Virus record (IMG/VR): IMGVR_UViG_3300045954_000073
Location: 1 to 60,277 of that record
Source of the DNA: a virus
Strand: one strand, 5' to 3'
DNA length: 60,277 nt
The notes under the pieces were generated by a model. That model was not told the origin of the DNA and ran no database searches. It was given only the letters and a program-made list of their open reading frames with translations. This document shows positions 18,293 through 57,998 of the stretch, piece after piece (within the stretch, counting starts at the first letter, position 1; each line of letters starts with the position of its first letter). The translations under genes were made by a program, and so were the position numbers.

Positions 18293-18384
18293 TAAATTTG
18301 CCCAAGAAACTTTGTCAGAGATTGCGTCACAACATCAAAAATTTTTGTTTAATCTTCTTGAAATTGTAATCAAAACACTTTGCA

Positions 18385-20282: not shown

Positions 20283-20291
20283 GAGGCACAA

Positions 20292-20825
20292 ATGCTTGAC
20301 TATCAAGACTTTAAGAATGCTGTATCGGAGCTAGAAAGATTTTATAAAGGTGAAATTTTAAACGGCGGAATTTTGGAATCCGCTTGGTATGAAACCTTGA
20401 AGCGATTATCGCTTTCACAACTGCAAACGGGAATAGCCAGATGCTTTTTAAAGCATCCCCGTAAATATAATTTTTTTCCCTCATCTGGGCAAATTTTGGA
20501 GTTTGCAGTTGGTGAATACCGTCCCCCCGGTGAATGTTTAAAAAGAGATTTTTCACTAGCTTGCTTGCCCTCTGAGGAACAAAGGATGTCTTCTGAAGAG
20601 AAAGCTGAAGCGATCAAGCGCGGAAGGCTCACAGCAACCATCATTGTAAACAGCAGTGGCTTTATGTCTGTAGAGCAAAAAGACAAACTAATCGAAAACC
20701 TGCGACAGAAACCAACCTATGAACTTGAAATGATTGCTTCCACGGCTAAACAGGCTCAAAAGCAGAAAATAGGCAAACGGAAGGCTTTTAGCAATATTTC
20801 GACAGAACTAGAAAAAGTGATGTAA
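20292..20825 (+). CDS. Putative replicative helicase loader (lambda P-like position)
   Basis: 177 residues, starting 9 nt after the initiator stop. The N-terminal half (FKNAVSELERFYKGEI, SLSQLQTGIARCFLKHPRK, FFPSSGQILEFAVGEY) has the helical layout of phage helicase-loader/G39P-like proteins, which link the origin-bound initiator to DnaB. The basic C-terminus (KQAQKQKIGKRKAF) fits DNA or helicase contact. No P-loop is present, so this would be a non-ATPase loader. Confidence 0.5.
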   Translation: MLDYQDFKNAVSELERFYKGEILNGGILESAWYETLKRLSLSQLQTGIARCFLKHPRKYNFFPSSGQILEFAVGEYRPPGECLKRDFSLACLPSEEQRMSSEEKAEAIKRGRLTATIIVNSSGFMSVEQKDKLIENLRQKPTYELEMIASTAKQAQKQKIGKRKAFSNISTELEKVM

Positions 20826-20841
20826 AGATGGAGGTACTAAA

Positions 20842-23800: not shown

Positions 23801-23886
23801 ATTTGAAGGCCGCCTACTGGCAATTACGTCGCAGCGGAAAAACTCACCAAGAAGCCAAGAAAATATTAGTAGGAGTAACACAATGA
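20842..23886 (+). CDS. ASCH-domain multi-module protein; frame runs on into a methyltransferase 3' end
   Basis: A 1014-codon open frame with two unrelated parts. Codons 1 to about 640 are a coherent protein: an SH3-like module (VGDRFAIPQSKQVCEIL), an ASCH domain at about 163-292 (KAITLHQPWAQLVGIHKHYE, GFHKLWDIE), a helical domain and two more SH3-like modules (VGDRVCYDINSSTRRG, GTVVSVGRSGFSIEWDG). ASCH domains bind RNA or modified bases. From 22758 a C5-methyltransferase is read in another frame, while this frame stays open in Ser/Thr-rich sequence that looks like a shadow. From about 23290 this frame carries that enzyme's C-terminal motifs (PTEAEMLMGWE, MLGNGIVPAEI). The native end of the ASCH protein is therefore unclear. 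Confidence 0.6.
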   Translation: MYDFQVGDRFAIPQSKQVCEILEIKTSRKSTPYRVRWGKSKIERWLGLSTLQKLKYLPSDEIISKPNSKSNSLNLGKVFNGAARLATDEDIKILSPGDWIKAKEENYCYCFKRWDGKTPVGEWKGKEFPFHRNLLMVCTSIDGVLIEKFCNDNTLAAPTKIIKAITLHQPWAQLVGIHKHYETRSWSTDYRGKLAIHAAQKPKRWNDHKKIISEFSDLLATRDCEYSAIVAIANLTDCIKMTEEFISQQSETEIRCGLWEIGRYAWKLENVKILSEPIPAKGFHKLWDIELSIFVVEESETFVNKDAQSSGLNSEGCVEQVLQYCVPGDVIGLGGWCILGQQPSYLTTFWETINNESQSQESALTFQPNLTVAICEFLGKCDRPAQSIRDIAKAVGCDVDNVHDALEVGRQQGLFKPAFTIEPDFWFLNRQESAEAETDKLTIDKLSVGDRVCYDINSSTRRGLVITAGERVGVKWDNWVTLAYSADDIANMVQYMNFRCEDIDPESEEFLQDLDADQYRWNEKDFGDVPRKADGDQLTIFFDDAEEPPLPEDFPDIQSFDKAWDVWDKQNQAYLTSVEKEWRVSGIVNKQQRRDGTVVSVGRSGFSIEWDGWIKIPYSFSQIQELKLLKIQKTEEKEECLQQDTYSVAVAATQKEQLKLDIALSGELITTPKPAPSSESDSQKPTCMNTTLENSLTTSFSVCPSPTASFGEALVQTFPLLANEPALMDLVDSCFLKESDFFASSVHHHSCLKTLRESLAVTKQLPSPSSSKRLQNWGMWGLGKNLMPTDTSLKTENEFIVWAITSDVRATQPKLYKKSLHEVLNGSPVNSFTGEDIDEAPTICGAGWQHRSPQNRDKSGASFAIIFRAADGDHVYSADLCKDAPTLRSLANTGKHQSGSGAYKVRQMGSDATIERPITPTEAEMLMGWEVGSTAIGIDAEGHEISISDTQRIKMLGNGIVPAEITNILERLKPILKRKLESEISPNLKAAYWQLRRSGKTHQEAKKILVGVTQ
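22758..23282 (+). CDS. DNA cytosine-5 methyltransferase, N-terminal part (gene split by +1 shift)
   Basis: From the ATG at 22758 (purine-rich ribosome site upstream): motif I LFCGGGGDTEGAIKAGY, motif II-like WGIDNN, catalytic motif IV GSPCPDFSTAGKR, motif VI FLFENVEG, motif VIII PQNRERIYCVGY. The frame stops at 23280-23282. Motifs IX and X lie downstream in the +1 frame, up to 23886. A full enzyme would need a +1 shift between about 23230 and 23282, or it has been lost by an indel or stop mutation. It carries the catalytic Cys but no target-recognition domain, so it is probably inactive as it stands. Confidence 0.8.
   Translation: MLTTGHLFCGGGGDTEGAIKAGYCPLWGIDNNSQACAVFRKRFPKTDLYEYDVRELSDDFILGLPIPDCLIWGSPCPDFSTAGKRAGINGSRGQLFFEGIRFLRLQRPPSFLFENVEGILSSDQATAFPLIIETFAELGYVGTWQKLNANRHVPQNRERIYCVGYHIGCKSNAA
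23321..23344. repeat. Perfect 11-bp hairpin at the methyltransferase break
   Basis: CACCCGTAAAC and GTTTACGGGTG pair perfectly across 2 nt, 39 nt after the premature stop of the methyltransferase's first frame. It could be the footprint of a small insertion or simply a local palindrome. Confidence 0.55.
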
Positions 23887-39232: not shown

Positions 39233-39934
39233 ATGCCAGAAGCAGTAGGCTCAGTTATTCTTGCCAATACTGGGCTTGATATTCTCATGCTCCCTTTGGG
39301 GAGCCGAAATCCTACCCGCCGCACCATCACAGCTACAGCGCAGGCTAATGTTGGTGCTACCTCTATCACTCTACAAAGTTCAGCTGCTAACACAGTAGTG
39401 AAGGCAGGAACCTGTTTGAGTTTTGCAACAGCTAGCCCCACAGAACGCCAGTTAGTGGTGCTAGCAGAAGACGCAACGATTGGAACCACTCCTGCACCTG
39501 TATCCATAATTGGATTAGAAAAAACAGTCGCAGCCAACTCCACGGCAAATTTTGTTGTTGGCTTACTACCTCTGTACGGTATTCAGTCCTTCGAGCTGAG
39601 TTCCAACGACCAAACCGTAGACGTGACTAACACGCGATCAGGCTTTGGAACGGAAAACGTTAAAGTCCGGTCAGGTCGTCAGTATCAAATCTCTGGGGTG
39701 CAAGTACCAGGAGATGTGGGACTGGAACTTGTCAAAGACATTAACCTCAATCCTGCCTTCTACAGACGGGAGGCTTGGACTGTCATTACCTATCCAGATG
39801 GTGAGAAGTACGAGGGAGCGTCAATGATTATGAACTTCTCTCAGCCAGGGAACCAAAACGAGGTAAAAAAATACAGTTTCCAGCTACAGTTCCAGGGTGA
39901 TCCGATTTGGACTCGCTCTTACTACCCTGCTTAG
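39233..39934 (+). CDS. Major tail (tube) protein
   Basis: 233 residues. ATSITLQSSAANTVVKAGTC is followed by a compact region (FELSSNDQTVDVTNTRSGFG, YQISGVQVPGDVGLELVKD, WTVITYPDGEKYEGASMIMN). Two-part beta layout, length and the place before the chaperones and tape measure fit the tube-forming protein of a siphovirus. It assembles as stacked hexamers around the tape measure. Confidence 0.65.
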   Translation: MPEAVGSVILANTGLDILMLPLGSRNPTRRTITATAQANVGATSITLQSSAANTVVKAGTCLSFATASPTERQLVVLAEDATIGTTPAPVSIIGLEKTVAANSTANFVVGLLPLYGIQSFELSSNDQTVDVTNTRSGFGTENVKVRSGRQYQISGVQVPGDVGLELVKDINLNPAFYRREAWTVITYPDGEKYEGASMIMNFSQPGNQNEVKKYSFQLQFQGDPIWTRSYYPA

Positions 39935-42074: not shown

Positions 42075-45000
42075 ATGAAATTAGGGGAATTGCTGATCGA
42101 ATTTGGCGGCGACTTCTCGCAGCTTGATAAGGACATAGCAGAAGCCAAGCGCAAGGCCTCTGCTTCTGCGCGTGATATTGAGCAAATTTTCAACAAGAGA
42201 TTGAGAATTAATGTTGACGACTCCCCATTAACTAGGCTGAACAAACACCTTGATTTAAAAGTTCGTCACCTGCAGCAAGTTCAGCAAAACTTTAACAGCA
42301 ACCCCCTAACAATTAAAACTGATGAATCCAATCTGACTAAACTCAACAAAGCTTTAGGTAAAATCGAGTCTAGTTCTAATGTGCAGATATCCATTAAGAC
42401 TAATCATAAATCAAGTGACCTTAAACAAGATTTTAATCAAATAACTGATGATATTGGTGATGAATTCGAGAAAGTAGGCGATCGCTTAGTCAAAGCTATC
42501 AAGAAATCTGGCAAGGGTGGTATTTTTGATGCTGTATTTGCCATTCCTAAAAATATAGGAGTGGGATTCCAAGAAGGTATAGGGAAGGTTTTTGCTGATA
42601 AGGTTGCCTCTGGCTATGTGCGATCGGTTGAGAGTAAGTTTAAAGTTTCCCTGCGTGATTTAGGCAAGAAAAATGCTGATAGCGTAATAGATGCCGGAGG
42701 TAATACCACTAATTCAGTATTAAATAAGCTTGGGATGAAGAATGGCGCTGATGATGTAAAATCGGGCGTTCAAGCAATCAATAATCAATTCAGGCAACTA
42801 GTTCCCGAAGACGTAATTAACGCCAAATTGACCCGTGTAGAGAAAAGATTTGGTAAGTTTTTTGACGATTTGACTAAGCTCAAATCTGCAGATGTAAACC
42901 TGAATAATCTATTGGGATTAGCTCAAGAAATTAGTTCAATCCCTAAAATACCGATTGAATCGATGCGTAATCGGCGTAAATCGGCGTTGTCAGAAATTGC
43001 ACAAAATATTAGAAAAGAGGCGAGGACATCCCATTCCTCTATAGAAGTTGACAAGGATGCTGAATACCTAACCTTTGTCAGTGGTGGCTATGCAGGGAAG
43101 CAAGGCAAAGGCTCCCACGACGCAGCTAAAAAAATGGGGATGTTGCTTGGAGACAAACACCAAGTAATTCCGGTAGAAGATGTTTACACAGACGTTAGCA
43201 GTCCAATTGGTGAACAGGGCGCTTTGCGCTGGTCAGCCGAAGCATTAATGAAAACATTAAAAACGCCTTTGAAGCATGGCATCAATCCAGATGCTGTGAC
43301 TATGGCAACGCAGGCTTACCAGGCACACTTGCAAGATCCCACAAAGCCGATTAGAGCCGCTGGCTATTCAGCTGGCGGCTTTGTAGTTAATGATTTTGTG
43401 GAGATCATGAAAGAACTAGGGGTGAAAGATGTAAGTGCAGTTTCAATGGGTACGCCTCACTACGGCGTCTTGTCCAATAACAAACCCAATCAATACACCC
43501 CAATACTGGGGCAAGATGATGGGGTTATGAGGCTTGGTAAAATAGGAGCAGTTTTCACAGGTGGCTTTGCACCCAACATGCAAACAACCAGTGTCAGTGG
43601 GCATGAATTATCGAGTTACCTTGCCGATCCTCAATCTCAACATTACTTTCTGCAAGGATTAGAGGGAGCGAATTATGAAAAGCGTTCAGACGCTTTCAAT
43701 AATCCTGATACTTTTCGGATTTTAGATTATAAAAAAAATATTGAAAAAGCACTTGCTGGAATTGAGGAGATTTTAGTCAATCCAGTAGCAGATCAAGGTT
43801 TGCAGCAGCAAATACTGAGTGCGAATTTGGAAGGCATTAAGCAAACTAAATCTGATATTGATGAAGTTTTACAAAAATTAGATAAAGAAGTAATTGCCGA
43901 CTTTCAAGAATACTATGATGCACTGCTGGAAGCTGAAGCAGTTTTGCAAGATTTGATTGGTCAATCTCAACCTAAGCAGGTAAGTAAACCTCAAGGCACT
44001 AATGCGCCTTCTAGGAATGATGTTGAGCAATTAATGATGGGCGCTCAAAAAAGGGATTTAGAGCTAATAGCACCTGCATTTGGCATCAAAAATGCAGGCA
44101 AAATATCAAAGCAAGACTTAACACAATCGCTGCTAGATAAAGCACCATTAGAGATACTCAAGCAGCGATTGCCTTTTATGGTAGAGCCTAGTCAGCAGGT
44201 GCTGGACTCCATCAGTAAACGTGCAGCATTAGATCCAGATGCATTAAAGACGGTTACACAAGCAAGTTCTATAAATTTATTGAAACGATCTAGACAAGCT
44301 ACTAGAGGCTCAGAATTAATCACTTTGTCCAGTGATATTGAGCGTGAATATCAAATAGTTATTGGTTTGCTAGGCAAAAATTTATCTGAAGATTCCAAGA
44401 GAATCTTGCAAGGTGCAAAATTAACTTTGGGGAAAGCTAGGAAGCTAGCTATTCAAAATGCAGTTGCAGAAGTTAGTGAACAATATCAGCAACGTCAAGC
44501 AAGCCAGTCAAACCAATCTCAAGGCTTGGCTAGAACAAGCAACCCACTAAACCCATTATTGAAACTGCGGCAAGATGCATTGAAGCAAATGCGTCAGAAC
44601 TATAAGCAGGTATTTAGTGAATTAGCCAGCTTGACCAATTTTCAATTTGACGCCAACAAACTGCCTAAGTTGGTAGTTGATGAAACATCGCTACGCAATA
44701 TAGGTGCTGATGCTTTCTACGACATCGAAAAAAACCAAATATTAATTAACAAAGAAATTTATAAGGCGTTGCAGAAAACTCCTCAAGAATTAGCCAAAGC
44801 TGAAAATATACTTGAGATATTAGCCCATGAAGCACAGCACGTATTTCAATCGAATTACGGACAATTGTCGCTTGATGATTTAGTTGCTGGTAACTCTGCG
44901 GTTCCATTAGTAGATCCGTCTGCAGCGTCGCAAAAATCACGACAGGAGGCAAGGCAGAATGTCAAGCAAGTAAGGCGTGATACAGGAATATCATTTACCC

Positions 45001-48000
45001 GTGCCAAAGCTATTGAACGCTTAGAAATCGATGCTTATGAAGCTGAAAAGAAAGCTTCTCAGGTTGCAGTTAAATTGCAGGGAGCGGCGCCATCAAGGCA
45101 GGAAACCTCAGATGCGATTGCTTCAACTTTAGATAATATTTCTAAAATAATTCAAGAGTTTATACAAAAAATAGATTCTCTCGCACCGCAGATTAGAACC
45201 AACTTTATAGCCATTACTAAGGCTATGAATAATGGCTTGCAAGGATGGTTTGTATCTATCAAAGAAAAGCTCAATTTAATAATTAATCCGCTTCCTGAAA
45301 CTGTTGCAGATCCTTCTCAAGGATTGGCCAGGTCATCAGGCAAAACACGACGTATGCCAAATATGCGCCGTGCTCAACAATTCGCCGGAGACGTGGCTAG
45401 ATATGCTCAAGTGTTGGCATATAATGCCGAAACGCAAGCAGATGAAGCTACAGAAGCGTCAAGCACAAGATTAATTAATCGGATAGTACCCAGAAAAATC
45501 AGAAGGAAATTAGCCGCAGGCAGCGAAAAAGCAGAACAAGGCTTTAACTATTTAAGCGAAAATATACCAGGCTTTTTTAAAAACCCTGTGATAGATAAAA
45601 TTCTGACCTACACCTTGAAATTTAACATTAAGGGTTGGTCGGATGTTGTTGATGAATTTTATCGAGATTTAAATAAATTTTTCGCGTTTGTGGAGAAAAA
45701 GGCTGGTAATTCTCCATATTTAGGAGATTTTTTGAAACAGGCAACGGGCGGAGTCAAAAATTTATCTTTAACGCTTGTTGCTGGCACTGCTGTATTTTTC
45801 CGATTTTTCAGCATGATGAAATACATCGGATATTTACAGCAATTAAATGCTGTAGCTGTCATGGTTGCTACTACATTTGAAGGATTAAATAAACAATTCA
45901 TATTATCGGCAAGAACGCAAACACAGGGCATGGCGGCTTTAGAGCAGGCTATGTCGCTAGCTAAAGAACTGAGATTGAGTAGACAAGAACTTGTCACTGG
46001 AGGAGCGGGTATCCAAGCTGGTCTTAGACCACAAATCATTGATCAAATAGAAATCACTAAGTTTCTACAAGCTGCTACTCGCACAGCTAGAGTTTATGGT
46101 AGTACCCCCCAAAGTACGCAGCAGATCATGTCTGGTTTTGGGCAGATAACCCAAGACACTACCCTAAATCAACAAAGTTTTTCTCAACTACAAAATTCTG
46201 TGCCAGATGCTCTTTCTATTGCTGCTAGAGCGGCAAACACGACGGAAGCAGAATTCAGAAAGATGCTGGATACGGGCAGTGTCATAACCAATGAGTTTAT
46301 CCCACTGTTTACCAAGCAATTAAATGTCGAAGTCGAAACTGCTGGTAAATTAAGTTCGGCATCTGACACAATGGTTGCAGCTAATCAGCGATTGACAAAT
46401 GCTTTTGAGGAATTGCAGCTATCGTTCTCTGGGTTCCTGATTCCAATTAATAAGTTTGCCACCAATACTTATGCGGCAGCTGTAGAAAATGCTGTTGGAG
46501 TTACTTCAACTTTTAGCGCCGCATTGCAAGGCTTGGCGGCATGGGGCATTTATAAGTTTGCACGGGCTTTGGTTATGCTTGTTGGGCATATTCTAACGGT
46601 CGCTAAAGCTATTCCAGGATTAAGCATGGCGCTTCTTGCGGCGGGAAGAATTGCCCAACAAGTACTTTTTCAAACAATCCCTATTATTTTAAAGGTTACT
46701 AAAGAGCTTTTAATTTTCCAATTAATAGTTGACGGATTAACTATTCTCAAGGCTCGATTTTCTGATGCTGGGGGCAGTATTAGAGAATTTGCTGATTTAT
46801 CTATTAAAAATTTACGAGAACTAAAAAAGTCTCTTGATGATGTTAGCAATTCGACTCAAGCCATAGGTGATTCTCTCCCAAAAAAATCTTCCGAAATTAA
46901 AGGCAAGTCTTATTTGGAGGATACATTTTTTGGGGGAATAATTCCCAAAGAATGGGCAAGAAATATAGAAGATTTTGACAGAAATAGAAGAAATGTTGTT
47001 GATGATTATGCCCAAGAAAAGTATGGCAAGAATCGTCAAGATCAAGATTTATTTAGAATAAAATCTAGATCAGAAAAAGAAATGGAGGATAGGGGCAAGG
47101 CAACTGAGGAACTTGTCAAAACCTCCTCAGAACGAATTACCCTTGTTGGACAGCAGTTGCAACCAGGATCTGAATTATCTAGGGTCAAAGACCTCAACAA
47201 ACAAATTGATGCGATCCAAGGCAAAAGGCGAGCGATCTCTATTACCGATCCTAGTAACTCCAAACAGATAGAAAGTCTGCAGCGTGAGGAGTTGAAATTG
47301 CTGCAAGAAAGAGAGCGGCTTGTCAAGCCAGTAGAATTAATCGGATCTGGATTGGCGACGGACATAAAAGGCTTTAAAGAAGCCTTGATAGCTTACGACG
47401 AGATGGCTGCTAACGGCTTGATCACTCAAGATGAGTATGCAAAGCGAAATCAACAGCTTACTGATGCTTTAGAAAAAGCAGAAGATGCTCAAAAGCAGTT
47501 TAATAAAACAATGGAATATTCACTCACTCCGTTACAGGCCTTTGATAAGGTATGGAACAAAATTGCCAACAATTTATTAGATAGCAAGCTATCCATTGAG
47601 CAGGTGTCTAATTCACTAAAAACAGGTGTGGCAAATCAAGAAGCATCAGGGGATTTGTCTTCGGCCCAAGCCGGTTATATTAACTCCACAAGTCAGCAGA
47701 AATTATTGGGGCAACAGATTAAAATCACCGATTCTACAATTAAGCAGATGTATGGTGAACTGGAAGCTCAAGGTTCGGCAGAGATTTTTGCTAATTTAGG
47801 TATCAATAAAGAGACTGGCGTAAATCAGATTAAATCCCTCTCAGAAAAAGCAATAAACAGTCCTAGAGAAAAATCTGTACTTGACAAATTTGCAGAAATT
47901 AAAGGACTAGAACAAGAATTGTCTGGTTTGGAGCGGCAATTAGCAGAGGAAAGAGCCAACCTGCAACGCCAAATAGTGGATTTAACAAAACAGGTTGCCG

Positions 48001-51000
48001 ATTACTACCAGAACATCCAAAGACAAGCAGAACAGCAATCTATTGAATTTCAAAAACTCAAAAACCAAATTAATACTACAAATGCTCAAAACAAATTGAG
48101 AGCAGCTCTGACTAACGGCTACGACAACATTGTGACGCAATTTGTAGACGGCATTATTGATAGCATTGGGCAATTCAATCAAATAAGTGATCGCGCCCTA
48201 GACGCACAATCACAACTACTGCAAAACAGAAACCAGATACAAGATGCATCTCGACAGGCTATTGAATTGCGTCGCCAACTGCCAAATTTACCCACAATTC
48301 CTGTAGAGTTGGATTTTTCAAGTGTTAACGATAATACAAACATTCAGGAATTAAATGATGAGATAAGTGATGCTACTTCTAGCACCAAAGAATTAGAAGA
48401 TGCGATCGCATACTTAGAACGTTGTTTTAATCAAAATATTGATGCAGTAACTTATTTAAACAACAACATAAATCAGCTTGCACCTAATATCGAAACAGGT
48501 GCAGAATCTACCCAAAAATTATCCCAGGGATTTGATGATGTCAGCTCATCGGTTGATGGTATTTTGGGAAAAATCCAAGGTGTAGCCAGCACTACTGCTG
48601 AATGGCTATCTAATCTTGGTAATGCCCCAGCATTGATGCAGCAAATTGCTAATGGCATCGGCGGATTATTTGGACAAAGCCCCCAGCAAGTGCAAGATGC
48701 GACAAATCAAGTATTAAACAACCCCATCCAAGCGGCTCAAAATTTTTTAGGCGTGGACAAATTCAAGTTCCTTTCACCCATTGCTGGAACAACGGTAGAA
48801 GATTTATTGAGGTACAAACCCAGTCAAGGACAAGGGTTCTACGGTGTGAGGGATGGCGGCAAAAGGCAGCACAGCAAGATTGACTTTGATGGCAGGGCTA
48901 AAGCGGGTCAAAATGCAGAAATATTAGCTAGTCTGTCGGGGACGGCAACAGCTAAAGCCTGGACTAGCAACAGCGGTGGAATTTTCGTTGACACTGTGTT
49001 ACCTAGTGGACAAAAAATCACTTTAGAGTATGGACATTTATCACTAAAAAGTATTGCCCAAACCTTTGGCGGACAGCAAAATATAGGAACTAGAAACAGT
49101 CCAGGGAAGGTAATTCAAGTACAAGCAGGGCAAAAACTGGGGAACGTTATTCATGATAGCTTGTCCAGTGGAGCACACCTAGATTTTGGGGTGCGGATTA
49201 ATGGGAAATATGTTGAGCCTCAGAAATTTATGCAAGATTTCATTGCTGGCAAGTACGGTTCAGTGATGAGACAAAGCGCAGGGATGAGACAAAGCGCAGG
49301 GGCCATCGCCCCTAACAACAAATTGAATGCCAAATCAATTGCTGAAAATAGGGGATTACAATCTTTGCTGATTCAAGATTTGCAATCAGGGCAAATCTTG
49401 TCTGAATCAAACAGCAGCAAATCTCCGAAATCCCCAGCTTCAACAATTAAATTAATTGTTGGTGATTTGGTTGCTGATGCTGTTGAACAAGGTAAGCTTG
49501 AATTGCAAAGTCAGCTAACTCTAAAGCCTGGAGAAATTGCTGAATATTCCAATCTCAAGTCTGGACAAAAACTAACTGTTGCTGAGTTAGTTAATCTGAT
49601 GCTTGCAGAATCAGATAACACTGCTACAAATGCCTTGATAAACAGTTTAGGAGGCTTAAGAAAAACTACACAATTAGCAATTAACAAAGGCTATAAAAAT
49701 ACCAGAATTAATAACTTGTTAAGTATTCCTGGAGGTGGAACAGGCGTCAGCAATGTTTCTACTGCACAGGATACCACTATGGCAGCTAGAAATATTTTGC
49801 TGTCAAATAGTGAAGCGGGTAAAGTAGCAGCAAGTGCTTTAAGAAGCACTCGCAATTTCAAATATCAAGGTGAAGCAGGGGGGAAAATTGGTAACAATTC
49901 TCAAGTGCTGGGCAATGTAGGCGTTGTTGACATTCAAGGGAAAGAATATTTAGTCACAGCTTATGCTAACATCAACGGCAACAATGAAAACAATCGTTCA
50001 ATTATCAAAAACGCTACAAATGATGTTGTCAGTAGCCTGTCCACATCTGAGTTACCCGCATTAAGAAATCAAACTAGAGGCGGAGAGCGAGGGGTAATTA
50101 ATAACAAGACTATAAGCAGAGGCGCAAATCAGCTTTCCCCAGCAGAATACGCAAAATTAACACCTCTTGGTAGAGAACTTTATGAGCTACGCAATAATCC
50201 ATACATATTAGCAGTTTCGGACGCGGTGGCTAGGGCCGAAGGATCGGACTTTAGAGCGAATTCCAAAAACTTTGGCTATGGAATGATGATCGGTGGAGAA
50301 AATACCGCTGATTTTCGCGGACACCCATTTGTTGAAGGCGGAAGGCGTCCTCGGCACAATTCCACAGCATCTGGCCGCTATCAGATGATGAACTTTAATT
50401 ATTCCAAATCTGCGGTTCAACGTCAATTTGGCAAAGGCGCCAGAACAGATTTAGAAGCTATTATCAATTACAATGGGGCAGACAATCCTGGAACTTTTAG
50501 CCCCGGATTGCAGGATCTATATTTCATCCAATCTCTAAAATCTAGAGGAGTTTTGGATCAAATTCTCAGTGGCAAGATTGATGCTAGTGTGTGGAATAAA
50601 CTTGCCCCGCACTACGCCTCTATTCAGTCTGGAAGCAGAAGAAGTGCTTATGGCGGACAAGGAACGCCAGAAGGGCAGCACAGCAGTTTAAATAAATTCG
50701 TCGGACAAAGGCTACAAGTTCGCCAAAATCCCGCTATGCAAGCAGCTTTGAATGGGCGAAGTATTTCCCCTGCTCAAATGAATGCAACTGTCAACCAAGG
50801 CTTGGCGTTGGCGCAATCTGGCTACGAACAGCAACAGGGACTGATTCAAGAGCAAGCAGCAGCTGACAGCGAGAGACAAAAGCAGGAATTTTTGAGAAAT
50901 CAACAGCGAAATTTGCGGCAGTTTCAGCGTGCTGGTAGAGATTTGGAGGATCAGCGGCGGGGCGAAAGACGCCAAACCGAAGATTTAGCTACAAAGGCGA

Positions 51001-52955
51001 TCGCTAACCCTAGTCCTCAGCAGCAATTTGCCGTGAAAGTACGTGACATTGACAGAGAATATGACGATGCAATTCGAGATAGAGAAAGGCGATTAGCAGA
51101 GATTAAGCAACGCATTACCAGTGCAGAACAATCTTTAGCTACCGGACAAATTACGGGTGAAAATGCGGACGCCCTAAATAAACAGTTGACCAGCGACAAA
51201 ACAGCCTTGGTCGAGGCGCAAACTGAATTGGAGAAATTGACTCAGTTAAGAAAAGCAGCCAAGGAAGAAGCTGAAAAACTTTTCAACAGAGAAGAGGGAT
51301 TGCGACGCCAAAACGCTTCAATGGCGCAACGCAAAGCCGAAATCGCCAATTTACAGGAGCAAATCAACCTGCTCAATCAATTGGGGAAAATCAACTTTTC
51401 CGATCCTAGAGTGCGCCAATTGCCTGAATTGCAAAAACTTTTGGAATTGAATCAGGCTGATTTAAATCTTCAAGAAGAACTACAACGTATCGAACAGGAG
51501 CAATATTCTCACACCATCACTCCAGAGGAGGCACAACGACGGATTGCGATCGCCACCCAGCAAAATGAGAAGTTGAAAGAGACAATAACTCTCAAGCAAA
51601 CTGAATTACAACTAGAAGAGGCAAGGCGACAAATAGAAGGACAAAATGCACTCAATCAGGCACGAATTACAAATCTGAGAAGCCGGGCCACATCCGCCAA
51701 ATATAATCCTGATGCTAACCCCATCTTGTTAGAATCTGAGGCGTCCAAACTGGAGTTAGAACAGAAATATGCAGATACTGTTCGAGATTTGGATGAAGCA
51801 TTGCGAACTGGGCGCTATGGACAAGCAACCCTAGAAATTGTCCCTAAGCTTAAACAGCAAGCTTTGATTACTGCCTTGCGTGATGCGAAAAATGCCGCTA
51901 GTCAAACGAAATTGGAATTAGAAACTAGAGAGTTTGAGAAAAACCAGCGATTTTCTCAGTCAAGACAAGATTTGCTATCAGCGAGGGCAGGCTATCTCAA
52001 GACCTATGGACTTGATGCCCAAGCTGGCAAACTGGAAAAAGAAACTGCTGTTCTTCAACAAAGAAGCAGCTACCGATCATCTATTAGGGAATTAGAGCAA
52101 TTTGCGATCGCCAACAATTTGAGTGCCACTGAAGTGCAAAAATTGAGGAGTGAACTTGACCAAATTAACCAAGTAAAACTAGACACCATTAATGCACAAT
52201 TCAGTGTGTGGACAGATGTAATTAAGGGTACTCAATCTCAGTTTCAGGGATTTTTCAAAGATTTGATCAGTGGCAGTGATGATTTAGGTAGCGCGTTTGG
52301 TAAATTGTTTGGTGGCATTGGCGATATGCTAGCTAATCTTGCGGCTCAGTGGCTGACCAATGAACTGTTCGGCTCCATCATGGGTAAAGGCGGGGGTGGC
52401 GTTGGGCAGCAATCTAGCGGTGGATTTTTAGAAGGGATATTTGGTGGCTCTTCTGGCGCTACTCCCGGATTCGGCGGTGGTTTTGGTGGTAGCCTACTGG
52501 GGGGAGTGTTCAGTCTTTTTGGTTTTGCTAGCGGTGGTATGGTTGGCGAAATCCCTAATTATGCTACTGGTGGAATGCCAGAAAACTTTGCCGACAAGGT
52601 GCAAAAAGCTTACAGTCGCGAAAAAATTATGACTGGTAGGATGCCTCATTTAATTGTGGTTTCCGAAGGAGAGCGCATTCTCAATCATAAAGAGACAGCT
52701 ATTTGGAACCAATTACAACAGTCAGGTAAACTAAATTTTGCTGATGGTGGCGTGGTGGGCACTAGCGATAATATTAGTAATAATGTTGTTGACAGTACCT
52801 CTCGTACAACTATCAACGTACCTATCACTATTCAATCTCAGGGTAATAGCGGGAAGAAAGAATTTACTCCAGAACAAGCCAAGGTGTTAGAACAGGTAGT
52901 TACTGCTGTGATTGTTAACCAGCAACGCCCTGGCGGAGTTTTGTACGGATTTTAG
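42075..52955 (+). CDS. Giant tape measure protein with several enzyme domains
   Basis: 3626 residues; tape measures set tail length and enter or cross the envelope at infection. In order: coiled N-terminus; alpha/beta-hydrolase-like domain (about 330-540; nucleophile elbow GYSAGG, Ser432); possible zinc site HEAQH (918-922); tape-measure core (about 1265-1460); hydrophobic segments (about 1480-1560); coiled coils; M23-like endopeptidase (about 2235-2390; QHSKIDFDG, His2266/Asp2270, and HLDFG at 2368 where His is usual at the third position); class A beta-lactamase/DD-peptidase-like domain (about 2430-2650; STIK 2456-2459, SDN 2513-2515, KIG 2604-2606); GH104-type lysozyme-like domain (about 2709-2870; Glu2722, GRYQM); coiled coil; Gly-rich C-terminus (FASGGMVGEIPNYATGG). 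No interruption is seen. Confidence 0.88.
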   Translation: MKLGELLIEFGGDFSQLDKDIAEAKRKASASARDIEQIFNKRLRINVDDSPLTRLNKHLDLKVRHLQQVQQNFNSNPLTIKTDESNLTKLNKALGKIESSSNVQISIKTNHKSSDLKQDFNQITDDIGDEFEKVGDRLVKAIKKSGKGGIFDAVFAIPKNIGVGFQEGIGKVFADKVASGYVRSVESKFKVSLRDLGKKNADSVIDAGGNTTNSVLNKLGMKNGADDVKSGVQAINNQFRQLVPEDVINAKLTRVEKRFGKFFDDLTKLKSADVNLNNLLGLAQEISSIPKIPIESMRNRRKSALSEIAQNIRKEARTSHSSIEVDKDAEYLTFVSGGYAGKQGKGSHDAAKKMGMLLGDKHQVIPVEDVYTDVSSPIGEQGALRWSAEALMKTLKTPLKHGINPDAVTMATQAYQAHLQDPTKPIRAAGYSAGGFVVNDFVEIMKELGVKDVSAVSMGTPHYGVLSNNKPNQYTPILGQDDGVMRLGKIGAVFTGGFAPNMQTTSVSGHELSSYLADPQSQHYFLQGLEGANYEKRSDAFNNPDTFRILDYKKNIEKALAGIEEILVNPVADQGLQQQILSANLEGIKQTKSDIDEVLQKLDKEVIADFQEYYDALLEAEAVLQDLIGQSQPKQVSKPQGTNAPSRNDVEQLMMGAQKRDLELIAPAFGIKNAGKISKQDLTQSLLDKAPLEILKQRLPFMVEPSQQVLDSISKRAALDPDALKTVTQASSINLLKRSRQATRGSELITLSSDIEREYQIVIGLLGKNLSEDSKRILQGAKLTLGKARKLAIQNAVAEVSEQYQQRQASQSNQSQGLARTSNPLNPLLKLRQDALKQMRQNYKQVFSELASLTNFQFDANKLPKLVVDETSLRNIGADAFYDIEKNQILINKEIYKALQKTPQELAKAENILEILAHEAQHVFQSNYGQLSLDDLVAGNSAVPLVDPSAASQKSRQEARQNVKQVRRDTGISFTRAKAIERLEIDAYEAEKKASQVAVKLQGAAPSRQETSDAIASTLDNISKIIQEFIQKIDSLAPQIRTNFIAITKAMNNGLQGWFVSIKEKLNLIINPLPETVADPSQGLARSSGKTRRMPNMRRAQQFAGDVARYAQVLAYNAETQADEATEASSTRLINRIVPRKIRRKLAAGSEKAEQGFNYLSENIPGFFKNPVIDKILTYTLKFNIKGWSDVVDEFYRDLNKFFAFVEKKAGNSPYLGDFLKQATGGVKNLSLTLVAGTAVFFRFFSMMKYIGYLQQLNAVAVMVATTFEGLNKQFILSARTQTQGMAALEQAMSLAKELRLSRQELVTGGAGIQAGLRPQIIDQIEITKFLQAATRTARVYGSTPQSTQQIMSGFGQITQDTTLNQQSFSQLQNSVPDALSIAARAANTTEAEFRKMLDTGSVITNEFIPLFTKQLNVEVETAGKLSSASDTMVAANQRLTNAFEELQLSFSGFLIPINKFATNTYAAAVENAVGVTSTFSAALQGLAAWGIYKFARALVMLVGHILTVAKAIPGLSMALLAAGRIAQQVLFQTIPIILKVTKELLIFQLIVDGLTILKARFSDAGGSIREFADLSIKNLRELKKSLDDVSNSTQAIGDSLPKKSSEIKGKSYLEDTFFGGIIPKEWARNIEDFDRNRRNVVDDYAQEKYGKNRQDQDLFRIKSRSEKEMEDRGKATEELVKTSSERITLVGQQLQPGSELSRVKDLNKQIDAIQGKRRAISITDPSNSKQIESLQREELKLLQERERLVKPVELIGSGLATDIKGFKEALIAYDEMAANGLITQDEYAKRNQQLTDALEKAEDAQKQFNKTMEYSLTPLQAFDKVWNKIANNLLDSKLSIEQVSNSLKTGVANQEASGDLSSAQAGYINSTSQQKLLGQQIKITDSTIKQMYGELEAQGSAEIFANLGINKETGVNQIKSLSEKAINSPREKSVLDKFAEIKGLEQELSGLERQLAEERANLQRQIVDLTKQVADYYQNIQRQAEQQSIEFQKLKNQINTTNAQNKLRAALTNGYDNIVTQFVDGIIDSIGQFNQISDRALDAQSQLLQNRNQIQDASRQAIELRRQLPNLPTIPVELDFSSVNDNTNIQELNDEISDATSSTKELEDAIAYLERCFNQNIDAVTYLNNNINQLAPNIETGAESTQKLSQGFDDVSSSVDGILGKIQGVASTTAEWLSNLGNAPALMQQIANGIGGLFGQSPQQVQDATNQVLNNPIQAAQNFLGVDKFKFLSPIAGTTVEDLLRYKPSQGQGFYGVRDGGKRQHSKIDFDGRAKAGQNAEILASLSGTATAKAWTSNSGGIFVDTVLPSGQKITLEYGHLSLKSIAQTFGGQQNIGTRNSPGKVIQVQAGQKLGNVIHDSLSSGAHLDFGVRINGKYVEPQKFMQDFIAGKYGSVMRQSAGMRQSAGAIAPNNKLNAKSIAENRGLQSLLIQDLQSGQILSESNSSKSPKSPASTIKLIVGDLVADAVEQGKLELQSQLTLKPGEIAEYSNLKSGQKLTVAELVNLMLAESDNTATNALINSLGGLRKTTQLAINKGYKNTRINNLLSIPGGGTGVSNVSTAQDTTMAARNILLSNSEAGKVAASALRSTRNFKYQGEAGGKIGNNSQVLGNVGVVDIQGKEYLVTAYANINGNNENNRSIIKNATNDVVSSLSTSELPALRNQTRGGERGVINNKTISRGANQLSPAEYAKLTPLGRELYELRNNPYILAVSDAVARAEGSDFRANSKNFGYGMMIGGENTADFRGHPFVEGGRRPRHNSTASGRYQMMNFNYSKSAVQRQFGKGARTDLEAIINYNGADNPGTFSPGLQDLYFIQSLKSRGVLDQILSGKIDASVWNKLAPHYASIQSGSRRSAYGGQGTPEGQHSSLNKFVGQRLQVRQNPAMQAALNGRSISPAQMNATVNQGLALAQSGYEQQQGLIQEQAAADSERQKQEFLRNQQRNLRQFQRAGRDLEDQRRGERRQTEDLATKAIANPSPQQQFAVKVRDIDREYDDAIRDRERRLAEIKQRITSAEQSLATGQITGENADALNKQLTSDKTALVEAQTELEKLTQLRKAAKEEAEKLFNREEGLRRQNASMAQRKAEIANLQEQINLLNQLGKINFSDPRVRQLPELQKLLELNQADLNLQEELQRIEQEQYSHTITPEEAQRRIAIATQQNEKLKETITLKQTELQLEEARRQIEGQNALNQARITNLRSRATSAKYNPDANPILLESEASKLELEQKYADTVRDLDEALRTGRYGQATLEIVPKLKQQALITALRDAKNAASQTKLELETREFEKNQRFSQSRQDLLSARAGYLKTYGLDAQAGKLEKETAVLQQRSSYRSSIRELEQFAIANNLSATEVQKLRSELDQINQVKLDTINAQFSVWTDVIKGTQSQFQGFFKDLISGSDDLGSAFGKLFGGIGDMLANLAAQWLTNELFGSIMGKGGGGVGQQSSGGFLEGIFGGSSGATPGFGGGFGGSLLGGVFSLFGFASGGMVGEIPNYATGGMPENFADKVQKAYSREKIMTGRMPHLIVVSEGERILNHKETAIWNQLQQSGKLNFADGGVVGTSDNISNNVVDSTSRTTINVPITIQSQGNSGKKEFTPEQAKVLEQVVTAVIVNQQRPGGVLYGF

Positions 52956-53375: not shown

Positions 53376-54053
53376 ATGACCGCGCCTAATTCTGAGCTAT
53401 TAACTCTAACGCCAGATGCAATAGTCAGTCTTTATATTTTAGATTTGACGCCATTGGGTACAAATCAATTGTATAAATTTTGCAACTGGAAACAAAGCGA
53501 TGGCGCAGATATTATTTTTCAGGGGCAAACCTATATTTCCTTGCCTTTTGAAGCGAGTGGATTTGAACTAAGCACGCGAGGACAGCCAGCACAGCCTAGC
53601 ATTACACTGAGTAATATATTCGGGGTTTTTACTGCTTTCTCCTTGCAATTCAACGATTTGGTGGGTGCTACCTTAATCAGAAAACGTACGCTAGCCAAAT
53701 ATCTAGATAACTCCCCGACAGCAGATCCAAACATGGAATTTAGTGATGATCGCTATCGAGTGTGGCGCAAATCGCAAGAAAGTGAATTGAGAATCAGCTA
53801 TGAATTAAGGCGATTTTCCGATTTAGGATTTCGCAGCAAAATCCCAGCAAGAATTATTATTAAAAATTCTTGCTTCTGGCAATACCGTAGCTCTGAATGT
53901 GGTTACGCTGGTGGGGTGATCGCGGATGAGAATGACAACCTTACAAATGACCTAAGTAAGGATGCTTGTGGGAAAAGATTATCCAGTTGTAAACTTAGAT
54001 TTGGGCAATATGGAGAGTTGCCTTTTGGTGGCTATCCTGGGGTAGATAGTTAA
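53376..54053 (+). CDS. L: Minor tail protein L (lambda gpL-like, Fe-S type cysteines)
   Basis: 225 residues. ELLTLTPDAIVSLYILDLTP, YISLPFEASGFELSTRGQ and LTFSNIF-like segments precede the Cys-rich C-terminus. The four conserved cysteines (SCFWQYRSSECGYAG and DACGKRLSSCKLRFGQYGE) match those that hold the [4Fe-4S] cluster in lambda gpL. Part of the tail tip; it starts 21 bp after the inverted M start and overlaps closely with the I gene. A deleted copy is at 4106-4335. Confidence 0.83.
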   Translation: MTAPNSELLTLTPDAIVSLYILDLTPLGTNQLYKFCNWKQSDGADIIFQGQTYISLPFEASGFELSTRGQPAQPSITLSNIFGVFTAFSLQFNDLVGATLIRKRTLAKYLDNSPTADPNMEFSDDRYRVWRKSQESELRISYELRRFSDLGFRSKIPARIIIKNSCFWQYRSSECGYAGGVIADENDNLTNDLSKDACGKRLSSCKLRFGQYGELPFGGYPGVDS

Positions 54054-54063
54054 ATTTGTGATA

Positions 54064-54648
54064 ATGATGAAAATAGTCAAATTATTAGGTGAGTTAGGTA
54101 GAAAATTCGGAAGAGAATGGCGACTCAATATTCATACTCCCGCTGAAGCCATTAAGGCGATCGCTGTTAATTGCCCTGGATTTATTGAGTATCTATACGC
54201 CAGCGAGGAGAGAGGATTGTATTGGCGAGTAGTGATTGACGAGCCACAGGGCATTGACCAATCACAATTCGGTTTCCCCATTACCCAAAAACTGGTGATT
54301 GCGCCTATTATTACTGGTTCTGGTGGTTTTGGAAGAATTCTTTTAGGCGGTGCCTTGATCGCAGCCTCGGTATTTATGCCTGCATCAGTTTCAATAATTG
54401 GGATAGGCATCACCTCTACCACAGTTGGCTTATTAGGGGCAGCTTTACTGTTTCAGGGAATAAGCTCGTTGCTTGCTCCCCAAAACAAAACACCTAAAAA
54501 TAATAAAAATGAGTCTTATTTATTTGATAGATCAGCAGGATCTGGAAGACAGGGTTCGCCTGTTCCAATCGGATACGGCGAAAGGCTAATTACTGACCCT
54601 GTAATTATTAGTCAAGGTATCACCACAGAAGAAATCCCCGCAAATTAA
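54064..54648 (+). CDS. I: Tail assembly protein I (lambda gpI-like)
   Basis: About 194 residues from the ATG at 54064 (an adjacent ATG at 54067 and a GTG at 54058 are possible). The N-terminal ubiquitin-like part (WRLNIHTPAEAIKAIAVNC), the central hydrophobic glycine-rich segments (GFGRILLGGALIAASVFMPA) and the end YGERLITDPVIISQGI match gpI, a factor required for tip assembly. K, its usual upstream neighbour, is missing here. Confidence 0.78.
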   Translation: MMKIVKLLGELGRKFGREWRLNIHTPAEAIKAIAVNCPGFIEYLYASEERGLYWRVVIDEPQGIDQSQFGFPITQKLVIAPIITGSGGFGRILLGGALIAASVFMPASVSIIGIGITSTTVGLLGAALLFQGISSLLAPQNKTPKNNKNESYLFDRSAGSGRQGSPVPIGYGERLITDPVIISQGITTEEIPAN

Positions 54649-54650: not shown

Positions 54651-57600
54651 ATGACTAATAAACAAAGAATAATAGTACGTGGATCTGGGGGCGGCGGGGG
54701 CGGTTCTAGTGGCAACACCCCAAGGGAAGCACCCAATAACTTAAGATCGCGGGCAGATGCGGTCATTTTGCTTTTGTTGGGTGAAGGTGAAATAGAGGGT
54801 TTTTCCACAGCAGATCCCTTGCAAAGTATTTATTTAGATGCCACTCCCATAAAAAATAGCGATGGCAGCCTAAATTTCCAGAATGTAGCCATTGATTATC
54901 GCACAGGTACTCAATGGCAGGGTTATATCTCCGGCATTTCTAGTGCCGTTCGTAACGAGATAGCTGTAGGCACTCAAATCAAACAAGTTAATGGGCCCAC
55001 CACTCGTACCATCGTCAATCCAGATGCTAATGCCGTGATTGTGCGAGTCATGATTCCTACGCTTTTAGATCAAGACGACAAAGGCAATATCAACGAGTCG
55101 TCGGTCAGTTTCCGCATTGATTTATCGACTCAGGGGGGGAATTTTGAGCCTATCTACAATGAAACTATTAGCGGCAAAACTTCTGGGAACTACGAGCGAC
55201 AATATAGAATTAATTTAAGTACAAGTGGCCCTTGGGATATTCGCATCACTAGGCTTACGCCAGATAGTGATCGCACCACACTCCAAAATTCTCTATTTTG
55301 GCAGTCGCTAACTGAGGTGATTGATTTGAAATTGCGCTATCCCAATAGCGCATTACTTGGCGTTAGGGTAAGCGCCGAGCAATTTAATAGTATCCCGAAA
55401 GTCTCAGTCAAACTGAAACAGATAAGAATTCTTGTGCCTCACAATTACAATCCACTGAGCAGACAATATTCAGGGATTTTTGACGGCACTTTGATTAGGC
55501 AATACAGCAATAATCCAGCATGGATTTTTTACGATTTAATCACTAATTCTCGCTATGGTTGCGGTAAATATATTGATGAATCGCTAGTGGACAAATTTGA
55601 TTTATACGCTATTGGGCAATATTGCGATGAACTTGTTCCCGATGGAAAGGGCGGGATAGAACCGCGTTTTACTTGCAATGTTTACATCCAAAATCAAGAT
55701 GACGCTTTTAGGATTTTAGAATCCCTTTCTGCTTGTTTTCGAGGCATGATATATGAGCGCAATGCAACTATCACAGCTGTGCAAGACAAGCCATCAAATC
55801 CGAACAGAATATACACTCGCGCTAATGTAGTTTGCGAGTACGATGATGATGGACGATTAACGGCTCCACCATTTGTATACAGTGGCAGTAGCTTAGATAC
55901 TCGCGCAACTGTGGCCCTAGTTAGTTGGAGCGATCCAGCTAATAATTACGAGACTGCTGTAGAGACAGTAGAGGACAAAGAAGGACTAGCAAAATTTGGT
56001 TACAATTCAATAGAGTTAGCGGCTTTTGGATGCACTTCTAGAGGACAAGCTTACAGGCTAGGCAAATGGACTTTGCTAAGTCAACGCTATCTAACTCAAA
56101 CAATTACTTTTAAAGTGGGTGCTGAAGGGTTGCTCGTCAATCCCGGAGAAGTTTTTAAAGTGATGGATTCTCTAAAAAGCGTTTCTCGTCGCGGGGGCAG
56201 AATTAAAGCTGCGGGCATCAATTTTATAGAACTAGATGACGCAGTAATAATTGAGCCTGGAAAAAGTTACAATCTTTCAACAGTTAAAAGTAACGGGATT
56301 ATTGAAACTAAAATTGTTTTAAATTCTAGCGGAATACATACAATTTTGTATGTTAATAATTGGTCGGAGACACCACGACATATTTGGATTTTAGAATCCA
56401 GTGATTTACAGGCTCAACTCTTCAGGTGTACCGCAGTTTCAGAAATTGGCGAACATTTATATGAAATTGTGGGAGTTGAGTATAATCCTAGCATTTATGA
56501 TTTAGTAGAGAAATCAGGATTCTTGCTTGAAGAACCAGATGTTAGCGGTTTCCCAGATTTACTGATACCGCCTAGTTCGCCATCTGCACTAAAAATTCAA
56601 GAATCCTTGTATCAAACCATTGGAAGCGGAGGGGTGAAAACCAAAGCCAGTATTACCTGGCAGGCATCAACTTCAATACTTATCAAAGAATATCAACTAG
56701 AATATCGCAGAGATGGACAATCTCAATACACAGTGATTGGCGGACTTCAAGATTTATCAACTACACTATACGATGTAGCACCAGGAATATATTTTTTTAG
56801 AGTAAAAGCTATTAATAATTATGGGACATCTAGCAGTTACACGCAACAAGTCCAAGAAATTTATGGACTATCTTACCCACCGTCTGATGTCCAAAATTTT
56901 TATGTAAATATTACAGATTCATATGCTAATTTCACATGGAATGAATCTCCTGATTTAGATGTTCGAGTAGGAGGTAAATTTAGAGTTAAATATACTAGCA
57001 AAAAACAAAACACTTCTTGGGCTGACGGCATAGAAATTGCCGCAGTTGCTGGGTACTCAAATTACCTCAGATTTCCAGCACTTGAAGGAACATTTCTAAT
57101 TAAAGCTGTGGACTCCGAAGGGAACCAAAGTAGGAATGTGGCGCAAGTCGTACTAGACAACATTTCACGAACTATAAACTACAACGCAGTAGAAACATCT
57201 ATTCAGCATCCTAATTTTAATGGGATAAAAACAAATACTATTGTTGTAGACAATCAACTCAAGCTAGCCTCTATTGATTATTTTGATTTTCAGACCGGAC
57301 TATTTGACGATATGCCGGGATTATTTGATGATGTTGCCGGATACTTTGATTCAACCGAAGGCGATTTTGATTTTCAGCCTGGAATGTTTGACGATCTGGG
57401 TATTTTATACGCAATATACCCATCAGGATACTATGATTTTGATGCGCCAATAGACTTAGGAGATATTTTTGACTCTCGTTGCACTGCCAATTTCTCTGGA
57501 AGGGCAATTGATGAATCAAGATTTTTTGATAGAGTAGGAGGGCTTTTTGACAATTATTTGGGTTTTTTTGATGGAGAAGATATTGATAATGCTTCCGCCA

Positions 57601-57998
57601 TTCTTCAAATATCAGTTTCACAAGATGGAATAAATTATAATGAATATCAAAATTTTGTCACAGGAAATTACAAAGGCAGAGCTTTTAAATTCAGGGTATT
57701 TTTGCAAAGCAGTGAAGTTAAAAATAACTTTGCAATTAGCGAATTATCTGTTACTGTCGATATGCCAGATACAATTTTGTCCGGCAATACACAAACATCC
57801 AATTTAATTGATACGATAGTAAGCTTTAGTAAAAAATTCAGAGAAGTACCAGAAATAGGACTGACACTTCAAGATGGACTATCCGGTGATTATATTAAAC
57901 TAGAGTCTAAAACCACATCAGGTTTTGTGATTAATGCTAGAAACAATTTAAATAATAGAATTATAAGAACAATATCTTGGATAGCTAAAGGTTATTAA
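54651..57998 (+). CDS. J: Central tail hub / host-specificity protein (lambda gpJ-like)
   Basis: 1115 residues, close to lambda J (1132). The N-terminal hub part (AVILLLLGEGEIEGFSTADP, NGPTTRTIVNPDANAVIVRV, FTCNVYIQNQDDAFRILESL) is followed by FN3-like modules (about 640-800) and an unusual stretch of six tandem 7-residue repeats (YFDFQTG, LFDDMPG, LFDDVAG ...; residues 877-918), with related copies further on. The J protein makes the tail tip and in many phages the receptor contact. Its start follows the I stop by 2 nt. Confidence 0.8.
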   Translation: MTNKQRIIVRGSGGGGGGSSGNTPREAPNNLRSRADAVILLLLGEGEIEGFSTADPLQSIYLDATPIKNSDGSLNFQNVAIDYRTGTQWQGYISGISSAVRNEIAVGTQIKQVNGPTTRTIVNPDANAVIVRVMIPTLLDQDDKGNINESSVSFRIDLSTQGGNFEPIYNETISGKTSGNYERQYRINLSTSGPWDIRITRLTPDSDRTTLQNSLFWQSLTEVIDLKLRYPNSALLGVRVSAEQFNSIPKVSVKLKQIRILVPHNYNPLSRQYSGIFDGTLIRQYSNNPAWIFYDLITNSRYGCGKYIDESLVDKFDLYAIGQYCDELVPDGKGGIEPRFTCNVYIQNQDDAFRILESLSACFRGMIYERNATITAVQDKPSNPNRIYTRANVVCEYDDDGRLTAPPFVYSGSSLDTRATVALVSWSDPANNYETAVETVEDKEGLAKFGYNSIELAAFGCTSRGQAYRLGKWTLLSQRYLTQTITFKVGAEGLLVNPGEVFKVMDSLKSVSRRGGRIKAAGINFIELDDAVIIEPGKSYNLSTVKSNGIIETKIVLNSSGIHTILYVNNWSETPRHIWILESSDLQAQLFRCTAVSEIGEHLYEIVGVEYNPSIYDLVEKSGFLLEEPDVSGFPDLLIPPSSPSALKIQESLYQTIGSGGVKTKASITWQASTSILIKEYQLEYRRDGQSQYTVIGGLQDLSTTLYDVAPGIYFFRVKAINNYGTSSSYTQQVQEIYGLSYPPSDVQNFYVNITDSYANFTWNESPDLDVRVGGKFRVKYTSKKQNTSWADGIEIAAVAGYSNYLRFPALEGTFLIKAVDSEGNQSRNVAQVVLDNISRTINYNAVETSIQHPNFNGIKTNTIVVDNQLKLASIDYFDFQTGLFDDMPGLFDDVAGYFDSTEGDFDFQPGMFDDLGILYAIYPSGYYDFDAPIDLGDIFDSRCTANFSGRAIDESRFFDRVGGLFDNYLGFFDGEDIDNASAILQISVSQDGINYNEYQNFVTGNYKGRAFKFRVFLQSSEVKNNFAISELSVTVDMPDTILSGNTQTSNLIDTIVSFSKKFREVPEIGLTLQDGLSGDYIKLESKTTSGFVINARNNLNNRIIRTISWIAKGY

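What the first reader, a model, noticed from the sequence alone, without database searches (positions are those of the whole stretch)
42075..52955. Tape measure packed with a hydrolase, an M23 peptidase, a beta-lactamase-like domain and a lysozyme-like domain
Tape measures often carry one wall-cutting domain. Here one 3626-residue chain holds an alpha/beta-hydrolase-like domain (GYSAGG), a possible HEAQH zinc site, an M23-like domain, a complete set of class A beta-lactamase/DD-peptidase signatures in order and at roughly class A spacing (STIK, SDN, KIG at 2456, 2513 and 2604) and a GH104-like lysozyme. A serine beta-lactamase/DD-peptidase fold inside a tape measure is, to my knowledge, unusual. 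The set could act together to open the cyanobacterial wall during DNA entry. The M23 third zinc ligand looks replaced by Asp, so that domain may be altered.
Basis: partly seen in the sequence, partly recalled or inferred. Interest (0 to 1): 0.85.

Follow-up and report, generated by a model that had tools for sequence, protein, structure and literature searches.

The report
Penicillin-binding-type enzyme inside cyanophage tape measure
A cyanobacterial virus carries, inside the protein that sets its tail length, a cell-wall-cutting enzyme of the penicillin-binding type (closest to the cyanobacterial enzyme PBP-A, and not a true beta-lactamase) beside two better-known wall cutters, and at least five other virus lineages have the same fusion, so it is a real and recurring way of building a wall-drilling tail.

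Summary
One uninterrupted ORF (42075-52955, 3626 aa) is a tape measure protein (TMP_3 3.6e-13; siphophage tail cassette) that contains a class A beta-lactamase-fold domain (Pfam Beta-lactamase2 1.9e-25), an M23-like domain and a lambda-endolysin-like domain. An alpha/beta-hydrolase-like domain is likely. The HEAQH zinc site is unsupported. The host is cyanobacterial: 32 HIP1 sites against 0.45 expected.

The main correction is that the domain is not a beta-lactamase. The deacylating Glu166 is Leu, as in cyanobacterial PBP-A, which is the best sequence hit and fills Foldseek ranks 1-11. The domain scores 55 bits against NCBIfam's cut-off of 200. SxxK, SDN and the third-motif Lys are conserved; KTG has become KI(G/D).

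The fusion is not an assembly artefact. The domain sits in long ORFs, mostly recognisable tape measures, in six lineages on more than 30 contigs, with M23 and lysozyme modules swapped around it. The Asp at the third M23 zinc position is conserved in relatives.

Best reading: a PBP-A-like DD-peptidase recruited as a virion-associated lysin that cuts stem-peptide crosslinks during DNA entry. Catalysis is untested. Key prediction: penicillin should acylate the domain and might impair infection.

The parts
42075..52955 (+). Tape measure protein, 3626 aa, one ORF
   Evidence: TMP_3 and phrog_339 tape measure hits; between major tail protein and L-like minor tail protein
42075..42509 (+). Conserved N-terminus (residues 1-145) shared with cyanophage tape measures
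   Evidence: 38% and 32% identity to CrV-01T and Cr-LKS4 tape measures; 37 viral contigs
43062..43709 (+). Probable alpha/beta-hydrolase domain (about residues 330-545) with S432, D482, H510
   Evidence: low-confidence model
44826..44840 (+). HEAQH motif (918-922); zincin claim unsupported
   Evidence: motif only; no Pfam match; very low pLDDT
45858..46415 (+). TMP_3 tape measure domain (1262-1447)
   Evidence: Pfam 3.6e-13, above gathering score
48870..49220 (+). M23-like metallopeptidase domain; H2266, D2270, H2321, H2368, and D2370 in place of the third ligand His
   Evidence: Pfam 3.4e-4; profile vs 2hsi 6.3e-16; HxD shared with L102, L195 and L006
49365..50015 (+). PBP-A-like DD-peptidase domain, class A beta-lactamase fold (2431-2647): S2456, K2459, S2513-D-N, L2549 at or next to the Glu166 place, K2604
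   Evidence: Pfam 1.9e-25; PDB PBP-A; AF2 pLDDT 84; Foldseek ranks 1-11 PBP-A; alignments
50205..50684 (+). Lambda-endolysin-like (GH104-type) lysozyme/transglycosylase domain (about 2711-2870), E2722
   Evidence: profile vs 1am7 1.6e-31; phrog_17029
51546..52949 (+). Tape measure C-terminal part (3158-3625)
   Evidence: phrog_339 3.2e-12
39233..39934 (+). Major tail protein upstream
   Evidence: phrog_820 and phrog_1407
53376..54053 (+). Lambda L-like minor tail protein downstream
   Evidence: phrog_18 5.7e-84
54058..54648 (+). Tail assembly protein (phrog_32) downstream
   Evidence: phrog_32 2e-44
54651..57998 (+). Lambda J-like central tail fibre
   Evidence: phrog_31 9.6e-254

Best explanation
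The gene is the tape measure of a lambda-like siphophage of a cyanobacterium. Between the tape-measure core and the C-terminus it carries three peptidoglycan-cutting modules: an M23-like endopeptidase, a PBP-A-like serine DD-peptidase and a lambda-endolysin-like glycan-cutting domain, plus a probable alpha/beta-hydrolase nearer the N-terminus. The PBP-A-like module would attack D-Ala-containing stem peptides through S2456 (K2459 and S2513 assisting), ideally cutting 4-3 crosslinks as an endopeptidase, while the lysozyme cuts glycan and M23 another peptide bond, so that the ejected tape measure can open a local hole for DNA entry. Shown: one ORF, tape measure identity, fold and closest relative of the domain, conserved catalytic Ser/Lys/Ser, absence of the deacylating Glu, recurrence and modular exchange. 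Inferred: that the enzyme is active, that it is an endopeptidase rather than only a carboxypeptidase, and when it acts.
For: Pfam and PDB matches. AF2 pLDDT 84 and Foldseek ranks 1-11 all PBP-A. Leu at the Glu166 column in the window and most relatives, as in PBP-A (Phe in L195); S70, K73, S130 and N132 equivalents conserved, including L195 and L196, which were found by a pattern without SDN. Low dN/dS (window vs L151 0.30/1.78). Six lineages with changing module sets around the domain. HIP1 32 vs 0.45 expected. PBP-A has DD-carboxypeptidase and DD-endopeptidase activity (PMC11189452). Precedents: the TM4 tape measure motif aids DNA injection (PMC1796659); CwlP of SP-beta carries lysozyme and endopeptidase (PMC5380687).
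Against: The usual KTG Thr/Ser is Ile in the whole family, and Gly is Asp in L151 and L167. The loop that carries the Lys is low-confidence in the model (model residues 183-194, pLDDT below 50). The Microcoleus phage relative has no Lys at this site in the alignment and has SNN, so some members may be inactive. No biochemistry was available. Glu96, which sets PBP-A's preference for amidated muropeptides, is not conserved in place.
Confidence: 0.7

Rival explanations
1. The domain is a pseudoenzyme that binds D-Ala-ending stem peptides and anchors or guides the tail tip in the wall without cutting.
For: KTG altered to KI(G/D) in every member; the Microcoleus phage relative lost the Lys and has SNN; low-confidence loop.
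Against: Nucleophile Ser, Lys and the Ser/Asn of the second motif are kept in all six lineages under purifying selection; a pure binder need not keep S2456 and K2459.
Confidence: 0.2
2. A true class A beta-lactamase that destroys beta-lactams.
For: Fold and Pfam family; SxxK and SDN present.
Against: Glu166 is Leu (or Phe); 55 bits against a cut-off of 200; PBP-A is closer than any beta-lactamase by sequence and structure; a virion tape measure is an odd place for resistance.
Confidence: 0.03
3. The fusion is an assembly or recombination artefact.
For: Only one record of the window phage itself is held.
Against: At least 30 other contigs and six lineages carry the domain inside long ORFs, many with tape measure domains; L184 is a complete 2127-aa tape measure with M23, BLA and LYS in the window's order.
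Confidence: 0.01
4. The enzymes serve mainly lysis or virion maturation rather than entry (for example, helping to open the wall late in infection).
For: The lysozyme domain is of the lambda endolysin type.
Against: They are embedded in the middle of the structural tape measure; the published tape-measure lysin of TM4 acts at injection.
Confidence: 0.06

Closest known systems
PBP-A of Thermosynechococcus elongatus (Tll2115; PDB 2j7v, 2j8y)
   Same: Fold (TM 0.77-0.80), STIK and SDN motifs, Leu in place of Glu166, cyanobacterial setting
   Different: Stand-alone cellular enzyme with KTG; the phage domain has KI(G/D), is about 25% identical and is built into a tape measure
Tape measure / virion lysins: TM4 Tmp motif 3, SP-beta CwlP, enterococcal TMP-LT
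   Same: Peptidoglycan-cutting domains inside tail proteins; role in DNA injection shown for TM4; two lytic domains in CwlP; transglycosylases in enterococcal tape measures
   Different: They use lysozyme, transglycosylase or other endopeptidase domains; 'lactamase' and 'carboxypeptidase' do not occur in the review and the survey text-searched
Class A beta-lactamases (TEM-1)
   Same: Fold, SxxK, SDN
   Different: The phage domain lacks Glu166 and KTG and fails the curated score
Microcoleus phage My-WqHQDG 'beta-lactamase enzyme family protein' (OR578706)
   Same: Beta-lactamase2 domain (1.6e-12) close to M23 and amidase genes and a baseplate J-like gene
   Different: A separate 653-aa gene, not a tape measure; motifs partly lost
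BFVD entry A0A510E7V3_3
   Same: 51% identity over the domain within a 1191-aa fragment of a large viral protein
   Different: Unnamed in the tables at hand; its origin could not be checked here

Membership tests
Class A beta-lactamase | SxxK and SDN motifs | tested here: met
   S2456-K2459, S2513-N2515
Class A beta-lactamase | Glu166 in the omega loop | tested here: not met
   Leu in the window and Leu or Phe in five other lineages
Class A beta-lactamase | K(T/S)G third motif | tested here: not met
   KIG; KID in L151 and L167
Class A beta-lactamase | NCBIfam NF033103 curated cut-off (200 bits) | tested here: not met
   55.2 bits
PBP-A-like DD-peptidase | Class A fold with PBP-A as nearest relative of known structure | tested here: met
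   Foldseek ranks 1-11; sequence E 8.6e-16 with profile
PBP-A-like DD-peptidase | Leu158 instead of the catalytic Glu | tested here: met
   same column in alignment
PBP-A-like DD-peptidase | KTG motif | tested here: not met
   KI(G/D): so called PBP-A-like, not filed as a PBP-A
PBP-A-like DD-peptidase | DD-carboxypeptidase/endopeptidase activity, penicillin acylation | not testable with these tools
   needs purified protein
Tape measure protein | TMP_3 domain, long ORF, between major tail and tail-tip genes | tested here: met
M23 peptidase | HxxxD, active-site His, HxH | tested here: inconclusive
   HSKID, GH and HLD: first two met, third His is Asp, conserved in L102, L195 and L006; single-sequence Pfam score 21.2 below cut-off 28.7
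Lambda endolysin (GH104-type) | Homology to lambda endolysin and catalytic Glu | tested here: met
   1am7 1.6e-31 with profile; E2722 invariant in the five-row alignment
Alpha/beta-hydrolase | Ser-Asp-His triad in order and fold | tested here: inconclusive
   S432, D482, H510 conserved in the tape measure set, but one CL131 copy lost the Ser; fold model poor
Gluzincin metallopeptidase | HExxH with third Glu and a homologous family | tested here: inconclusive
   motif and LEIDAYEAE (983) only; no family hit at E 1

The most novel reading that the evidence does not exclude
Cyanophages have turned a host-type penicillin-binding DD-peptidase into a virion-associated lysin built into the tape measure, within an exchangeable cassette of wall-cutting domains. 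Beta-lactams could then act directly on virions and impair infection at the step of DNA entry.
Probability: 0.5. Interest if true: 0.75.

Novelty: new variant of a known kind. Interest (0 to 1): 0.64.

Why it matters
Lysins in phage tails are known, but those in the literature searched are glycosidases, transglycosylases or other endopeptidase types. A penicillin-binding-type serine DD-peptidase would add a new catalytic class to virion lysins, would show how phages adapt to cyanobacterial peptidoglycan (PBP-A prefers amidated stem peptides), and gives a simple handle: beta-lactam probes could label and block a virion enzyme. It also warns that annotators may call such domains 'beta-lactamase' and count them as phage-borne resistance genes.

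Tried and rejected
Whole-protein and terminase pattern searches of viral contigs found nothing; the J-protein search gave 80 distant siphophage loci, none with the beta-lactamase-fold module in the flanks fetched. Megablast to phages: none. The genome scan gave one weak Eubacterium hit; cyanobacterial genomes could not be centred, so no direct tree of cyanobacterial PBP-A against the phage domain could be made. The beta-lactamase and artefact readings were rejected (see rivals). In the last alignment the TEM KSG column was misplaced; the Lys motif is taken from the PBP-A and alignments. Text searches for a beta-lactamase domain in a tape measure gave no relevant paper, in an open-licence library only.

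Full report
OBSERVATION. The window is an IMG/VR virus record of 60,277 bases. The ORF at 42075-52955 is open for 3626 codons. It lies in a lambda-like tail cassette: major tail protein at 39233, then this gene, then L-like (phrog_18), phrog_32 and J-like (phrog_31) genes. It is a tape measure: Pfam TMP_3 3.6e-13, phrog_339 tape measure at the C-terminus, NCBIfam tape_meas_nterm above its cut-off, and an N-terminus that aligns with the annotated tape measures of Cylindrospermopsis phages CrV-01T and Cr-LKS4.

HOST. GCGATCGC (HIP1) occurs 32 times against 0.45 expected from shuffles. HIP1 over-representation is a known mark of cyanobacterial DNA (own knowledge). The N-terminus and hydrolase-like domain match cyanophages, and M23 best matches a Leptolyngbya plasmid protein.

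THE BETA-LACTAMASE-FOLD DOMAIN. Residues 2431-2629 match Beta-lactamase2 at 1.9e-25. The best PDB sequence hit is Tll2115, PBP-A of Thermosynechococcus (9.3e-11 single sequence; 8.6e-16 with a family profile). AF2 with a six-row alignment gives pLDDT 84 and pTM 0.85; the weak spots are model residues 138-142 and 183-194, the latter holding the third-motif Lys. Foldseek ranks 1-11 are all PBP-A entries, ahead of every beta-lactamase.

NOT A BETA-LACTAMASE. In an alignment with TEM-1 and PBP-A the Glu166 column is Glu in TEM-1, Leu in PBP-A and Leu in all phage rows; with two more lineages it is Leu in L196 and Phe in L195. The PBP-A L158E entry (2j9o) marks this as the same position. NCBIfam's class A model gives 55 bits against a cut-off of 200. 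The PBP-A paper states that this Glu is a key difference between PBP-A and class A enzymes, and that PBP-A has DD-carboxypeptidase and DD-endopeptidase activity with a strong preference for amidated stem peptides (PMC11189452). The phage family differs from PBP-A in KTG, which is KIG or KID; what that does is unknown.

RECURRENCE. A pattern for DNTATN found 44 viral contig stretches, of which 27 hold a strong relative of the domain inside a long ORF. Two other patterns, which do not include SDN, were then run; they brought in further contigs, among them L195 and L196, both with SxxK and SDN intact, so conservation of these motifs is not just an effect of the first pattern. By clustering there are six lineages: window, L151, L167, L195, L196 and one large cluster; the large cluster is near-identical and counts once. 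dN/dS is well below 1 (0.30/1.78 for window and L151; dS is high and so approximate). In longer stretches fetched from these records the domain lies in ORFs of 1582 to 5212 aa; Pfam TMP_3 is found with it in L142, L151, L178 and L179.

MODULES. Architectures differ around the domain. Window: M23 - BLA - LYS. L184/L151, a complete 2127-aa tape measure near major tail and phrog_18 genes: YkuD-like - M23 - BLA - LYS. L195: M23 - YkuD-like - BLA - LYS. Large cluster: LYS - BLA, in some with the hydrolase-like domain. L102/L104: M23 - LYS, no BLA seen in those records. L087: M23 and a DPBB lytic transglycosylase, no BLA. This looks like an exchangeable cassette of wall-cutting modules.

OTHER DOMAINS. 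The lysozyme part matches lambda endolysin at 1.6e-31 with a profile. M23 is confirmed with a profile at 6.3e-16; HxD in place of HxH is shared by L102, L195 and the Leptolyngbya plasmid protein, so Asp may still hold zinc. The hydrolase-like domain keeps S432, D482 and H510 in the tape measure set, but the model is poor. HEAQH has no support beyond the motif.

MECHANISM. Most likely the tape measure is ejected with or before the DNA and its modules open the wall locally: glycan cut by LYS, peptide crosslinks by M23 and the PBP-A-like domain. The TM4 tape measure motif gives the precedent for a role in DNA injection (PMC1796659). A review describes most virion lysins as single-domain and only five with two lytic domains (PMC5380687); three in one tape measure would be many. 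Activity, substrate and timing are inferred.

NOVELTY. No paper in the open-licence library describes such a fusion, but an unnamed BFVD protein with 51% identity exists, phrog_14881 includes the domain without a function, and the Microcoleus phage gene is already annotated as beta-lactamase family. The family thus sits unrecognised in databases; the kind (tail lysin) is known and the catalytic class is new to it as far as I could see.

Noticed in passing
L151/L184 residues about 561-700; L195, L196 and L183: A further module with H-x-D and GS(A/S)GCIVF, resembling the Cys motif of L,D-transpeptidase-like (YkuD) enzymes, in some of the same tape measures; no Pfam match seen for L151.
   Followed up: partly
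L187:10735-12693 (Microcoleus phage My-WqHQDG): Beta-lactamase-fold domain in a separate protein near two M23 genes, an amidase and a baseplate J-like gene; the N-terminal part may be a spike/hub OB-like domain (by eye only). Catalytic motifs partly lost.
   Followed up: partly
L004:13582-19014 (CL131 gp048): Three copies of the hydrolase-like domain with repeated CKVGKPCGD(I/V)CIPKK motifs in a gene next to the tape measure; one copy lost the catalytic Ser.
   Followed up: partly
window 19533-19716: 23-base tandem repeat, six registers, inside the ORF at 19209-20282.
   Followed up: no
window 17284-23886: Several DNA methyltransferase-like genes in a phage with many HIP1 sites.
   Followed up: no
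window 53376-54648: No lambda K-like gene between the L-like and phrog_32 genes, so a tail peptidase may be replaced by the tape measure modules.
   Followed up: no
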